Shown here piece after piece: positions 1 through 42,583 of a stretch of 64,000 nt of DNA. The stretch's first letter is position 1, and each line of letters opens with the position of its first letter. The notes under the pieces were generated by a model. The model did no database searches. It was not told where the DNA came from and worked only from the letters and a program-made list of their open reading frames with translations. This DNA comes from Dysgonamonadaceae bacterium (GTDB lineage Bacteria; Bacteroidota; Bacteroidia; Bacteroidales; Dysgonomonadaceae), in NCBI GenBank assembly GCA_031254645.1, contig JAIRUA010000007.1:1-64000 (forward strand), written 5' to 3'. The translations under genes and the position numbers were made by a program.

Positions 1-3000
1 CCGATGTCAAAGATACAAATTTTTGAAAGCAATTCACAACTACTTGTTTCCATTCGTTTGCAGTTTTAATGTTGTTTCCGATGTCAAAGATACAAATTTT
101 TGAAAGCAATTCACAACTACTCGGTAACGAGGTGTCTGGTAACTTGGGTTGTTTCCGATGTCAAAGATACAAATTTTTGAAAGCAATTCACAACACAGGA
201 ACTTCCCTCTCTATAACTGTCTCAGTTGTTTCCGATGTCAAAGATACAAATTTTTGAAAGCAATTCACAACAGATGTAGATGCAACGTTAAACACATATA
301 AGTTGTTTCCGATGTCAAAGATACAAATTTTTGAAAGCAATTCACAACTTAAACGGATAGTTTTATACGTTCCACGAGTTGTTTCCGATGTCAAAGATAC
401 AAATTTTTGAAAGCAATTCACAACTTTACAAGTTAATATATTTTCACTCATTTTGTTGTTTCCGATGTCAAAGATACAAATTTTTGAAAGCAATTCACAA
501 CCATTGTCAATAAGACATAAAACAAACACCGGTTGTTTCCGATGTCAAAGATACAAATTTTTGAAAGCAATTCACAACTACTATTTACCCATTTCAAATA
601 CAACCGCCGTTGTTTCCGATGTCAAAGATACAAATTTTTGAAAGCAATTCACAACTAATTGAAAATAAAATGTTTGTATAAATCAGTTGTTTCCGATGTC
701 AAAGATACAAATTTTTGAAAGCAATTCACAACACAGCCGTACTCCGGCAGACAAAATCGCACGTTGTTTCCGATGTCAAAGATACAAATTTTTGAAAGCA
801 ATTCACAACCTGTTACTGATGCGAGTGTATTTCCGCGTTGTTGTTTCCGATGTCAAAGATACAAATTTTTGAAAGCAATTCACAACCGGGAAACGACCGC
901 GTGCGACCTGCAAAAAGTTGTTTCCGATGTCAAAGATACAAATTTTTGAAAGCAATTCACAACTAATAAATCCAACACGACCGTCTGCCTAAAGTTGTTT
1001 CCGATGTCAAAGATACAAATTTTTGAAAGCAATTCACAACTCTTTCGGTGTGTAATCAATGCTGTTATCGTTGTTTCCGATGTCAAAGATACAAATTTTT
1101 GAAAGCAATTCACAACTTTTCATCACGTGAAATAGTTTTGCCGATGGTTGTTTCCGATGTCAAAGATACAAATTTTTGAAAGCAATTCACAACTAGAAAT
1201 GGAAGTAGGCGCGGCAGAAGATTGTTGTTTCCGATGTCAAAGATACAAATTTTTGAAAGCAATTCACAACTAAAACAACCTCATTATCAATAGCTTTTGC
1301 GTTGTTTCCGATGTCAAAGATACAAATTTTTGAAAGCAATTCACAACTCACATACAAATGCCTAAAAACGTGTGTCTGTTGTTTCCGATGTCAAAGATAC
1401 AAATTTTTGAAAGCAATTCACAACTCCGGGAATGAAATTGAATAAAACGCGATAGTTGTTTCCGATGTCAAAGATACAAATTTTTGAAAGCAATTCACAA
1501 CTTCTTTCTTGTTCGGCATATTCTCGAATTTGTTGTTTCCGATGTCAAAGATACAAATTTTTGAAAGCAATTCACAACTTTTTTGACCTCTGCGTTTGAT
1601 TCCTTGCAGTTGTTTCCGATGTCAAAGATACAAATTTTTGAAAGCAATTCACAACTGGACGGGCACAACGACCCAAACGACCGCCGTTGTTTCCGATGTC
1701 AAAGATACAAATTTTTGAAAGCAATTCACAACCCCCTCCAGAAAACAGATGAGAATTTTAGGGTTGTTTCCGATGTCAAAGATACAAATTTTTGAAAGCA
1801 ATTCACAACAAAGGAATGAAAGCCGAAACATTGGAAGTTGTTGTTTCCGATGTCAAAGATACAAATTTTTGAAAGCAATTCACAACTCCCGCATCCTTTA
1901 GCCTTTGCAAGTGCTGGTTGTTTCCGATGTCAAAGATACAAATTTTTGAAAGCAATTCACAACTATAAGATTCACATTTCAAACTCTAATAAGTTGTTTC
2001 CGATGTCAAAGATACAAATTTTTGAAAGCAATTCACAACTAACTATCTGCTAACTATATAGTTGCGAAAGTTGTTTCCGATGTCAAAGATACAAATTTTT
2101 GAAAGCAATTCACAACTCTTTAATCGATTGTGTTGGCACTGTTCGGTTGTTTCCGATGTCAAAGATACAAATTTTTGAAAGCAATTCACAACTGTTTAGT
2201 CGATTGTGTTGGCACTGTTCGAGTTGTTTCCGATGTCAAAGATACAAATTTTTGAAAGCAATTCACAACTCTTTCAATGCTATCATAAAATGGAAGTACG
2301 TTGTTTCCGATGTCAAAGATACAAATTTTTGAAAGCAATTCACAACTTGAATCGGTTGTTGATAATTTTGCTGTGCGTTGTTTCCGATGTCAAAGATACA
2401 AATTTTTGAAAGCAATTCACAACAAGATCTCCTATCGTTACTCCATTCTCCTTGTTGTTTCCGATGTCAAAGATACAAATTTTTGAAAGCAATTCACAAC
2501 CCCACGCGGTGGGAAGCACAATCAGCGACGGTTGTTTCCGATGTCAAAGATACAAATTTTTGAAAGCAATTCACAACCATATAGTTGCTCTTTTGATATT
2601 TCAAACTGTTGTTTCCGATGTCAAAGATACAAATTTTTGAAAGCAATTCACAACCAAAATTTACAGGTGAAGATATACGAGAAAGTTGTTTCCGATGTCA
2701 AAGATACAAATTTTTGAAAGCAATTCACAACTGTCGAACTCTGTTTTCTTTCTTTTAGCAGGTTGTTTCCGATGTCAAAGATACAAATTTTTGAAAGCAA
2801 TTCACAACTATTTGCTTCGATTCGTCCGAATCACGGCGGTTGTTTCCGATGTCAAAGATACAAATTTTTGAAAGCAATTCACAACTGAATCCGAGTTGCT
2901 TAAAAAGTTTTCCGAGTTGTTTCCGATGTCAAAGATACAAATTTTTGAAAGCAATTCACAACAACTTTTTTCCGATGCTGTTACGTGCCATAGCTGTTTC

Positions 3001-3039
3001 CGATGTCAAAGATACAAATTTTTGAAAGCAATTCACAAC
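1..3039 (-). CRISPR. CRISPR array, 47-bp repeats, 39 spacers (type II-C-like)
   Basis: Forty copies of a 47-bp repeat are separated by 29-30 bp unique spacers, with a period of 76-77 bp. On the plus strand the repeat starts GTTGTTTCCG and ends AATTCACAAC. The first copy lacks 7 bp at the window edge, and the array continues to the left. The rightmost copy (2993-3039) has one changed base (GCTG instead of GTTG) and is otherwise exact. Length and sequence resemble repeats of Bacteroidetes type II-C Cas9 systems, whose crRNA-sense form begins GTTGTG; that gives minus-strand transcription. No cas gene, tracrRNA or leader is visible. The right end abuts the integrase gene directly. Array identity is certain; subtype and direction are inferred. 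Confidence 0.98.
2117..2222 (-). repeat. Pair of near-identical adjacent spacers
   Basis: The spacers at 2117-2145 and 2193-2222 match at 27 of 29 positions, differing at plus-strand positions 2 (C/G) and 7 (A/G). All other spacers look unrelated to each other. With minus-strand crRNAs these two positions are in the PAM-proximal seed. Confidence 0.95.
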
Positions 3040-3805
3040 TGATGCTCGACCTGTCAAAACAGTGTATATCAGCATATGCCATTCCAGTAAAGATTTGAAA
3101 AACGAACAAATCTTTAACACGTTGCAATGGTTTTGTTGTCGGCTCGAAACTGACAATTTTGTCGATTTCGCTCTCTGTGAGAAATATAGGGTCTTTTCCC
3201 CTGCCTTTTTTTACTTCAAATTCATCATAAGGGTTGTATTTGCAAAGTCCTTTTCTAACTGCTTTTTCAATGTATCGCCTGAAAAGCGAGTGCCGTTTAT
3301 ACAGGGTGGGTGGCGACTTGATGTGCTTTCTTAAATACAAATCAAAATCCTCTATATTGCCATAAGTGCAATCGGAAAAGACTTTTATTTTTCCAAATTC
3401 TTCCAATCTTCGAAGAAATGAATTGTGATATTCCACCACATTTAATGAGGGGTCAGTTTTCTTCATATATTCCCGAATAAACTCGGAAACGGAGTGAAGC
3501 TGCTCCGGATTTTTGTCCCAATTCTTAATACACTCAAATGTCGGGCAATCGTCCGAAAGACAAAACGCTTCTATTTTATTATATAGTCGCTTCGCCTTGC
3601 CTGTTATCTGTGCAGCATTTTGGTGGTTCTTGCAAGTAAAACCGTTTTTATCCGAAAATTGATTTTTGTACAAATGTATGCCTGTCGAGATTAAAACTTT
3701 TCGCACAGACTTGTTTAGGCGTACCTCTATTTGAAGCAGCCCACGTTTTGATTCAGTTGCTACGTTGATTCTATCGAATACGTAGCGGATTGATAAACTT
3801 TCCAT
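2981..3805 (-). pseudogene. Tyrosine recombinase/integrase truncated by the CRISPR array
   Basis: Residues 1-255 resemble a Bacteroidetes tyrosine recombinase: an arm-type DNA-binding N-terminus (about 1-100), a SAM-like core-binding domain (about 110-210), and the first part of the catalytic domain (VKDLFVFQIFTGMAYADI). The homologous frame then runs into the last CRISPR repeat at 3039 and stops at 2981, so the last 20 or so residues are translated repeat. The R-H-R-Y catalytic portion, roughly 130-150 residues in full-length relatives, is absent from the window. The gene points away from tRNA-Ser, the usual position of an integrase at an attachment site. It is probably inactive. Either the array interrupted it or a deletion joined the two; a C-terminal fragment may lie beyond the left edge. 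Confidence 0.85.
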
Positions 3806-3964: not shown

Positions 3965-3966
3965 AG

Positions 3967-4051
3967 CGGAGAGAGAGGGATTCGAACCCCCGGTACCTCT
4001 CAGTACAACGGTTTTCAAGACCGCCGCAATCGACCACTCTGCCATCTCTCC
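3967..4051 (-). tRNA. tRNA-Ser (TGA)
   Basis: An 85-nt tRNA with a long variable arm. Acceptor GGAGAGA pairs with TCTCTCC, the discriminator is G, the T-loop is TTCGAAT, and the anticodon loop CTTGAAA gives anticodon TGA. CCA is not encoded. It neighbours the truncated integrase and is the likely integration target of that element. A TACCTTTG promoter lies at 4075-4082. Confidence 0.96.
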
Positions 4052-9528: not shown

Positions 9529-12500
9529 TTATTCTATCTCAATCATATTATCTTTTCTCTCTTTTTTCGCCCTACCAATATTAAATGTTGCATACACCGT
9601 GGGCACAACAAGTAGTGTTAGAAGCGTAGAGAATGTCATACCACCGATAATGGCGATACCCATCGGTTGCCACATTTCCGAGCCCTCGCCGGCACCGATT
9701 GCCAACGGCATCATACCGAAAATAGTAGTGAGCGATGTCATCAATACGGGACGAAGACGTGATTTACCTGCAGTAATCACTGCCTCATTGATAGGCAGTC
9801 CGCGCTCGCGCTGCAGGTTGGTAAAATCGACAATGATAATACCGTTCTTGACGACAATCCCCACAAGCATTATTGCCCCAATGAGTGCAATCAAACTCAA
9901 TGGTGTGTTCGTAATCCAAAGTGCCAAAAATACACCGGTAAAGGCAAATAACACTGAAATCATAATGATAAGTGGCTGACTGAATGACTCAAACTGTGTT
10001 GCCATTACAATGTAAACCAACAAAAGAACCAATACCAACAATAGTCCCATATCTCGAAACGCGTTTTCCTGATCTTCTACCGAACCGGACAACACAACGG
10101 TAACACCGGCAGGTGTAACGGTTTCTCTGATCACTTCACGAGCGGCATTGGCAATTGTTCCCAAAGGTACGCCGTCGCCAAGGGCAACACTAACAGTTAC
10201 AACACGTTGTCGGTCTTCACGCTGAATAACAGGCGGAATAAAATCTTCAACAATCGTAGCTACTTCTCTCAACATTATGGTGGCACCTTGATTGTTCATC
10301 AACCTGATATTCAGGATGTCATCTACCGAGCCACGGAACTCTTCATCGTAACGAACCACAATGTTGTATTCTTCGCCGTCTTCACGGAAAACAGATGCGG
10401 TAAGTCCGTTGATCCTATTGCGCACAAAAGTAGCAGCGGTGGCTGTGTTGATACCGAATCGGGCAAGTTTTTCGCGGTCAAATTCTACGCGCATTTCCGT
10501 ACGCATATCTTCGCGGCTAATATTTACCTCACGAGCACCCGGTACTTCGCGCATTTTTGCCTGAATTTCTTTCGCAATGGCAGTAGTTTCATCGAAGTCA
10601 AAACCAAATATTTTGATATCGACCGTTCCGCTACCCATCATTCCACCCATTGAAGCACCAACGGTATAGGTGGTTACTTCGGGATAAAGGTCAACCTCTG
10701 CACGAACCACATCTTCCAGTTGCTGCTGCGTACGATTTCTATCTTTTCTATCCTTCAAAATCATTGTGTATGATACACCGTTTACACCCGTATTTCCGAA
10801 AAGGGCTGCAAATCCACCTTGATCACTCGCACCGGAACTAACGGCTAAATACTTGATTTCGGGAATCAATTCCATAAAACGTGCTTCTAGCCGCTCGGCA
10901 AAAGCAACAGTTTGTTCCAAGTTGTAATTCACGGGCAAGTCTATCGACACTTCTACTTGACCTTGATCTTGCGCCGGCATAAAGTCTTGCGGAACCATTG
11001 AGAACAACAAGATACTCACAACAAATATACCACCTGTAGAAAGCAACGTAATTAATTTATGATTCACTACCCAATTCAACAAACGAGCATATCCGTGGTC
11101 GAGTTTATCCAAAAACGCATCAATCGGCTTGAAGACAATACCCAACCCTTTATACGTGTGTGCATTTTTGTATTTCATCATATAGGCGGCGAGCATTGGC
11201 GTGAGTGTAACGGCAGCAACAGTAGAAACCGTGGTTACGATGGCGATAATCCAGCCCAATGGTTGGAACAGGATTCCTGCCATTCCACCTACCATTGTCA
11301 ATGGTAAGAATACTGCCAAAAGCGTTAAAGTGGTGGCGATAACCGCAAGCCAAACCTCATTCGTACCATAAATGGCGGCATCTTTCGGTCGCGCTTTTCG
11401 TTCCAAATGTTTCGTGATGTTTTCGAGTATCACAATGGCATCGTCCACCACGAGCACGAGGGCTATCGACAAAGAACTCAATGAAATGATGTTCAACGTA
11501 CCACCTGAAAACATCAGATAGATAAACGCTGTGATAAGCGAAACCGGAATGGTGAGACAGATGATAATCGTAGCACGCCAGCGTCCCAAGAAAAACAGAA
11601 TAACGAGAATTACAAAAAGAAATGCGTACATTACCGTTTCTGTTAAACTATTGATACTGTTTGTAATAAAAGTAGATGTATCAAACAATACGCCGAGTTC
11701 TACGTCGGGGGGCAAAGTGGCTCTCAATTCGGGCAACATTGCATTGATTGCATTGGCAATATCTACGGTGTTGGCACCCGATTGTTTCTGAATAATCATC
11801 ATCACACTACGCTGTCCGTTAAGGGTTTCTCGCACGGTCATCGTTCTAATGGTATCCGACACATGCGCTACATCGCGAACACGGATTTCTCTTCCGCCGA
11901 AGTTGACGACAACAAGGTCGTTAATTTCGCTCACATAGTTAAATTCGGCTTGTGTACGAATCGCTAATCTTTCCGACCCAATATCCATTGCACCAGCGGG
12001 AATCGCCAAGTTTTCCTGTGCGATGACTTGTCCGATTTGCTCAATGGTGATGCGAAATGCTTCCAATCTTTTCGGGTCTACGTTTACTTGAATTTCTCGT
12101 TCGGGCGCACCGCTGATATTTACCGCACCCACACCGTCGATTCGGTTGAGTGAGTTTACTACTCTTTCATCGAGTAGTTTATAAATACCACCGTAACTCT
12201 CTTCGGCTGTGGCGTATAAATACATCACAGGCATCATACTCGACGAAAATTTGAGAATCATCGGCGTTTGCACACCGTCGGGGAATTGACTTTCAATCCG
12301 TCCGATTACATCTCGAATTTCGTTAGATGCTTCGTCGAGATTTGTTCCCCACTCAAATTCGAGGGCAACGATTGAGGTATTTTCGCGTGAACTTGACACT
12401 AGACGTTTCATATTCGACACCGAGTTCAAGTTGTTTTCGAGTACCCTCGATACGTTTTGCTCAATATCTGCCGCACTCGCGCCGGGGTAGGCGGTAATAA

Positions 12501-41794: not shown

Positions 41795-41802
41795 CAAAGA
41801 TA
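41795..41802 (-). promoter_or_regulatory. Promoter -7 box of tRNA-Val
   Basis: TATCTTTG followed by GCACTCGC, a leader shared with tRNA-Ser. The same box TATCTTTG occurs in every CRISPR repeat. Confidence 0.7.
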
Positions 41803-42575: not shown

Positions 42576-42583
42576 TATCTTTG
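42576..42583 (+). promoter_or_regulatory. Promoter -7 box of tmRNA
   Basis: TATCTTTG, 24 bp before the tmRNA 5' end. Confidence 0.6.

What the first reader, a model, noticed from the sequence alone, without database searches (positions are those of the whole stretch)
1..3039. Each CRISPR repeat contains a Bacteroidetes promoter
In minus-strand sense, bases 26-33 of the 47-bp repeat are TATCTTTG, identical to the -7 boxes in front of tRNA-Val and tmRNA in this window. GTTG at bases 1-4 lies 21 bp upstream, near the -33 spacing. Transcription would start near the last 10 bases of the repeat and yield one spacer plus one repeat, so crRNAs may arise without a leader and perhaps without RNase III. 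Repeat-borne promoters are known in Neisseria and Campylobacter type II-C arrays; the sequence suggests an independent solution using the Bacteroidetes promoter form.
Basis: partly seen in the sequence, partly recalled or inferred. Interest (0 to 1): 0.8.

Follow-up and report, generated by a model that had tools for sequence, protein, structure and literature searches.

The report
CRISPR repeats carrying a Bacteroidota promoter
Each repeat of this bacterial CRISPR array contains the DNA start signal (promoter) typical of the Bacteroidota phylum, and the same signal is kept in CRISPR-Cas9 repeats across much of the phylum, which suggests that every immune memory is switched on by its own repeat rather than by one promoter at the end of the array.

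Summary
The 47-bp repeat (39 full copies in the window, 44 after joining the neighbouring contig) reads TATCTTTG at bases 26-33 of the minus strand, identical to the -7 boxes of tRNA-Val and tmRNA. [quoted passage not shown] Its tracrRNA, on the neighbouring contig, has its own TATTTTTG box and pairs with repeat bases 1-26, so crRNA sense is minus and the box lies just outside the paired segment.

The promoter reading survives comparison. Among 60 dereplicated cas9-linked Bacteroidota repeats, TAnnTTTG occurs in crRNA sense in 20 and in antisense in 1; shuffled repeats give about 1. A profile learned only from tracrRNA promoters finds the box in 44-48-bp repeats (z about 12). Spacing from the repeat's invariant TTG to the box peaks at 19, as in tracrRNA and tRNA promoters (19-20); here it is 21. 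TA and TTTG are conserved while 'nn' and the sequence behind the box vary. The outermost array copy often loses its tracrRNA-pairing half but keeps the box.

No RNA data were available, so transcription is inferred. RNase III independence and independent origin are not shown. Repeat promoters are known in II-C; this appears to be a new sigma-ABfr-type variant.

The parts
1..3039 (-). type II-C CRISPR array: 39 full 47-bp repeats plus a partial copy at the contig edge; continues on contig C20 (112-bp exact overlap), 44 repeats and 43 spacers in all
   Evidence: Rfam CRISPR-DR49 matches the repeats on the same strand just below its cut-off
2993..3039 (-). 5'-most (oldest-end) repeat in crRNA sense; single change A46G, promoter box intact
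3007..3014 (-). TATCTTTG -7 box of the 5'-most repeat (repeat bases 26-33); the same box is in every other repeat
   Evidence: position by direct count
3036..3039 (-). GTTG, candidate -33 element (repeat bases 1-4), 21 nt before the -7 box
   Evidence: same gap statistic in tracrRNA and tRNA promoters peaks at 19-20
3000..3002 (-). predicted transcription start zone of the first unit (repeat bases ~38-40), by analogy with the box-to-tracrRNA offset
   Evidence: inference (tracrRNA box usually 9-13 nt before the anti-repeat)
3040..3805 (-). truncated tyrosine recombinase (phage integrase SAM-like domain) whose frame runs into the first repeat; possible read-through source
41795..41802 (-).
42576..42583 (+).

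Best explanation
Each repeat of this type II-C array is a promoter for the next spacer. The primary Bacteroidota sigma factor (sigma-ABfr) recognises TTG near the start of the repeat (-33) and TATCTTTG at bases 26-33 (-7). It starts RNA about 5-7 nt past the box, in the last ~10 bases of the repeat, and the RNA reads through the 30-nt spacer into the next repeat. Bases 1-26 of that next repeat pair with the tracrRNA, which is made from the opposite strand by the same kind of promoter next to the leader. Shown here: the motif, its strand, conservation, spacing, position outside the tracrRNA duplex, and retention in degenerate terminal repeats. Inferred: sigma binding, the start site, and that these starts supply most crRNA.
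For: (1) The tracrRNA gene on contig C20 fixes crRNA sense as minus; its anti-repeat pairs with repeat 1-26 (-22.8 kcal/mol) and the box starts at 26, so pairing does not explain the box. (2) Exact TAnnTTTG in repeat bases 17-end: 20/60 dereplicated repeats in sense, 0/60 antisense (1/60 over the whole antisense repeat), shuffles mean 1.1, max 6 in 3000 rounds. At <66% identity, 7/16 with shuffle max 4. In a first set of 36 it ranked first of 4096 XXnnXXXX patterns by exact hits and third by near hits. (3) A profile built only from 40 tracrRNA promoters scores 44-48-bp repeats at mean 6.5 bits in sense, 0.0 antisense, 1.7 shuffled, z 12.4. (4) TTG-to-box gap peaks at 19-20 in tracrRNA promoters (20/40) and tRNA promoters (6/13), and at 19 in repeats (17/46). 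(5) Differences between related repeats: TA+TTTG 9%, nn 39%, sequence behind the box 49% (similar). (6) 5'-most copies keep the box in 46/49 arrays but the tracrRNA-pairing part in 30/49; 16 arrays lost the pairing part and kept the box, 0 the reverse. (7) Non-type-II repeats of the phylum: 0/17 (weak control).
Against: No transcript data. Shared ancestry is not fully removed by dereplication. The gap here is 21, off the 19-20 mode. Degenerate terminal copies often lose the TTG (kept 26/49), so the -33 part is unproven. The inner tail of terminal copies is also kept (42/49), so retention is not specific to the box. Several 36-bp Bacteroidota repeats have no box.
Confidence: 0.8

Rival explanations
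1. The mid-repeat motif is a recognition site for Cas1-Cas2 spacer integration (or another repeat-binding protein), and its likeness to the -7 box is incidental.
For: Repeats are integration targets and internal repeat motifs matter for integration in other types (general knowledge); the motif sits mid-repeat.
Against: The motif has exactly the TAnnTTTG form with free nn, is found in one strand only, varies in position (22-32) but keeps -33/-7 spacing, matches the form of the neighbouring tracrRNA promoters, and is kept in the outermost copy at the non-leader end.
Confidence: 0.08
2. The array is transcribed from outside, by read-through of the integrase remnant or tRNA-Ser side, and the boxes are weak or idle.
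For: The integrase frame runs in the same direction into the first repeat; tRNA-Ser lies about 930 bp upstream on the same strand; no minus-strand terminator-like site was found between.
Against: Does not explain box conservation, spacing and terminal-copy retention in arrays with unrelated flanks. Repeat promoters are the rule in studied II-C arrays (PMC3656092, PMC12080349).
Confidence: 0.07
3. The match is chance or inherited AT-rich sequence without function.
For: In one window the chance of TAnnTTTG in a repeat strand is about 3%, and repeats share ancestry.
Against: Excess over shuffles and antisense persists down to 66% identity clusters; the substitution pattern spares TA and TTTG but not nn.
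Confidence: 0.05

Closest known systems
Repeat-borne crRNA promoters of Campylobacter jejuni type II-C (Dugar 2013, PMC3656092)
   Same: Type II-C with cas9, cas1, cas2; a promoter element inside each repeat reading into the next spacer; RNA start set by the repeat.
   Different: There an extended -10 (GGTAAAAT) at the very 3' end of a 36-bp repeat with starts at spacer base 5; here a TTG / TAnnTTTG pair wholly inside a 46-48-bp repeat with a predicted start still inside the repeat.
Neisseria meningitidis type II-C repeat promoters (Zhang 2013, cited in PMC8092290 and PMC5006608)
   Same: Promoter in each repeat; no leader promoter needed; RNase III dispensable there.
   Different: Proteobacterial promoter form; RNase III question untested here.
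Flavobacterium columnare / F. psychrophilum II-C (Hoikkala 2021, PMC8092290; PMC10309648)
   Same: Same phylum; repeat-encoded promoter proposed from TTG 33-35 bp before each spacer; in F. columnare eight reads run toward the leader.
   Different: Only the TTG half was named and no -7 box was reported. The F. columnare repeats are 36 bp, a length class in which most repeats examined here lack TAnnTTTG.
Riemerella anatipestifer CRISPR1 (PMC5006608)
   Same: 47-nt II-C repeat beginning GTTG; 16-nt anti-repeat TGAAAGCAATTCACAA, as in these loci.
   Different: Its authors reported no promoter in the repeat.

Membership tests
Type II-C CRISPR-Cas | cas9, cas1, cas2 present | tested here: met
   on contig C20, which joins the window by an exact 112-bp overlap
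Type II-C CRISPR-Cas | no csn2 (II-A) or cas4 (II-B) | tested here: met
   the ORFs examined around cas9 on C20 are cas2, a four-helix-bundle protein, cas1, RhuM, cas9, then unrelated genes
Type II-C CRISPR-Cas | tracrRNA with anti-repeat | tested here: met
   L004 ~11406-11498 (+), box TATTTTTG 11394-11401, terminator 11469-11498
Repeat-promoter arrays of type II-C | host-type promoter element in each repeat, crRNA sense | tested here: met
Repeat-promoter arrays of type II-C | primary transcripts starting at each unit | not testable with these tools
   no RNA data
Repeat-promoter arrays of type II-C | RNase III dispensable for function | not testable with these tools
   varies in known members (C. 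jejuni uses RNase III)
Sigma-ABfr promoters (TTTG -33, TAnnTTTG -7) | TAnnTTTG at -7 | tested here: met
   exact match in all repeats; consensus as given in PMC7366714
Sigma-ABfr promoters (TTTG -33, TAnnTTTG -7) | TTG/TTTG at -33 with usual spacing | tested here: inconclusive
   TTG at gap 21; mode 19-20 in tracrRNA and tRNA promoters; GTTG also starts repeats that lack the box

The most novel reading that the evidence does not exclude
Across Bacteroidota (and an Ignavibacteria relative), most type II-C arrays with 46-48-bp repeats are driven by sigma-ABfr promoters built into the repeat. The extra ~11 bp relative to ordinary 36-bp repeats holds the -33/-7 spacing next to the tracrRNA-pairing segment. 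The outermost repeat decays to a 'promoter-only' repeat, losing the tracrRNA-pairing part, which would otherwise make a useless crRNA, while still transcribing the first spacer.
Probability: 0.55. Interest if true: 0.7.

Novelty: new variant of a known kind. Interest (0 to 1): 0.6.

Why it matters
It would explain how a large share of gut and environmental Bacteroidota make their Cas9 guides, why their repeats are longer than usual, and why earlier authors found no promoter (R. anatipestifer) or only half of one (F. columnare). It predicts exact crRNA 5' ends, and it means repeats taken from these systems for tools would bring a promoter with them. The decayed 'promoter-only' terminal repeats make the idea testable from sequence and with single-repeat reporters.

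Tried and rejected
Literature searches for TAnnTTTG with CRISPR repeats found nothing beyond the Flavobacterium papers. A sigma-70 scan upstream of the array was no better than shuffles. Automatic orientation by the anti-repeat misread a few loci where array remnants matched (L043-L048, L064, L096, L101); these were re-oriented by the conserved 5' GTTGTG. My first terminal-repeat scan had an identity threshold that favoured retained inner halves, so it was redone with suffix matching. Pairing with the tracrRNA as the reason for box conservation was rejected for the 46-48-bp class. The non-type-II control (17 arrays) is small and of shorter repeats, so it carries little weight.

Full report
What is there. 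The window starts inside a CRISPR array. In minus sense the 47-bp repeat is GTTGTGAATTGCTTTCAAAAATTTGTATCTTTGACATCGGAAACAAC; 39 full copies lie in window 1-3039, 38 of them identical, with spacers of 29-30 nt. The window is contig C22 of the assembly. The end of contig C20 overlaps its start exactly by 112 bp inside the array, which gives one array of 44 repeats and 43 spacers. C20 carries cas9 (1610 aa), an inserted RhuM-family gene, cas1 and cas2, and no csn2 or cas4: type II-C.

Direction. Between cas9 and the array lies a tracrRNA gene on the opposite strand. Its anti-repeat pairs with repeat bases 1-26 (duplex -22.8 kcal/mol), it has a -7 box TATTTTTG with TTG 19 nt upstream, and it ends at an intrinsic terminator. 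crRNAs therefore read on the minus strand, from the integrase remnant at 3040-3805 toward cas9.

The observation. TATCTTTG at repeat bases 26-33 and its identity with the tRNA-Val and tmRNA boxes are confirmed; tRNA-Ser and tRNA-Ala have TACCTTTG. By the window's own frequency a single repeat strand would carry TAnnTTTG about 3% of the time, so the single case is suggestive only.

Comparison. I fetched cas9 loci from about 60 unnamed Bacteroidota genomes and 80 named ones, found their arrays, and oriented the repeats by the tracrRNA-pairing end. Dereplicated to under 83% identity there are 60 repeats. Exact TAnnTTTG from base 17 on occurs in 20 in sense and 0 in antisense; shuffles give 1.1 on average and never more than 6 in 3000 rounds. 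At under 66% identity it is still 7 of 16. Similar boxes stand 7-14 nt before most recognisable anti-repeats. A profile built from 40 such tracrRNA promoters, with no repeat in it, scores the 44-48-bp repeats at 6.5 bits in sense, 0.0 in antisense and 1.7 in shuffles.

Spacing. In tracrRNA promoters TTG ends 19-20 nt before the box in 20 of 40, and in tRNA promoters in 6 of 13. In repeats the invariant TTG at bases 2-4 is most often 19 nt before the box; in this window it is 21. GTTG also begins repeats without a box, so it is weak evidence alone.

Constraint. Between related repeats the TA and TTTG letters differ in 9% of cases, the two free letters in 39%, and the stretch behind the box in 49% (same trend). 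Example: three close 36-bp repeats read TAGATTTG, TAATTTTG and TAGTTTTG. In the 46-48-bp class the anti-repeat usually stops at bases 24-27, just before the box, so base pairing does not explain the constraint.

A natural test. In II-C arrays the 5'-most repeat serves no spacer as a tracrRNA-pairing handle, but under the promoter model it must still start the first spacer. In 49 arrays with upstream sequence the 5'-most copy keeps the box in 46, the pairing segment in 30 and the TTG in 26. Sixteen lost the pairing segment and kept the box; none did the reverse. In one the replaced sequence ends exactly at the box (L165), and in another only the free letters of the box changed, TATCTTTG to TAAATTTG (L128). 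Limit: the inner tail behind the box is also kept in 42 of 49, so the pattern fits 'promoter half kept' but does not single out the box, and the TTG is often lost.

Exceptions. Several 36-bp Bacteroidota repeats (for example GTTGTGGTTTGATTAAAGATTAGAAAACACGATATT) have no box and end in GATATT, TACATT or TAGATT. A number of long repeats have only near-boxes such as TATTTTTA or TTTCTTTG. The rule is therefore broad, not universal.

Mechanism. By the offset between box and anti-repeat in tracrRNA genes, RNA would start near bases 38-40 of the repeat, leaving about 8-10 nt of repeat, the whole spacer and the next repeat. A 3' cut in the next repeat is still needed. In C. jejuni RNase III does it (PMC3656092); in Neisseria it is dispensable. 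Nothing here decides that for this locus.

Known and new. Repeat promoters are the accepted pattern for II-C (PMC3656092, PMC12080349). For Bacteroidota they were proposed from a TTG alone (PMC8092290, PMC10309648) and denied in R. anatipestifer (PMC5006608). I found no report of the -7 box in these repeats in the open-access library searched; subscription papers were not available. Verdict: a new variant of a known kind, with transcription itself still to be shown.

Noticed in passing
L004:5444-6499 (G000:C20), between cas9 and cas1: A RhuM-family gene (Pfam PF13310; PADLOC candidate PDC-S05) sits inside the cas operon between cas9 and cas1, overlapping both ends by a few bases.
   Followed up: partly
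window 2981-3805 and 3966-4051: A truncated integrase running into the oldest repeat, next to tRNA-Ser on the same strand: the array's old end abuts what looks like the remnant of an element integrated at tRNA-Ser.
   Followed up: no
window ~2114-2221: Two adjacent spacers are near-identical (27 of 29 letters), differing at a few sites, as if taken from two related invaders or as an update against a variant.
   Followed up: no
L043-L048, L056, L089 and similar: 36-bp Bacteroidota type II repeats without TAnnTTTG end in TACATT, TAGATT or GATATT, placed like the -10 elements at the 3' ends of Campylobacter and Neisseria repeats.
   Followed up: partly
tracrRNA genes in most loci, e.g. L004:11394-11498: The tracrRNA region after the anti-repeat (TAAGGATTATTCCGTTGTGAAAACAT) is strongly conserved across Bacteroidota and could serve as a tracrRNA finder.
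   Followed up: partly
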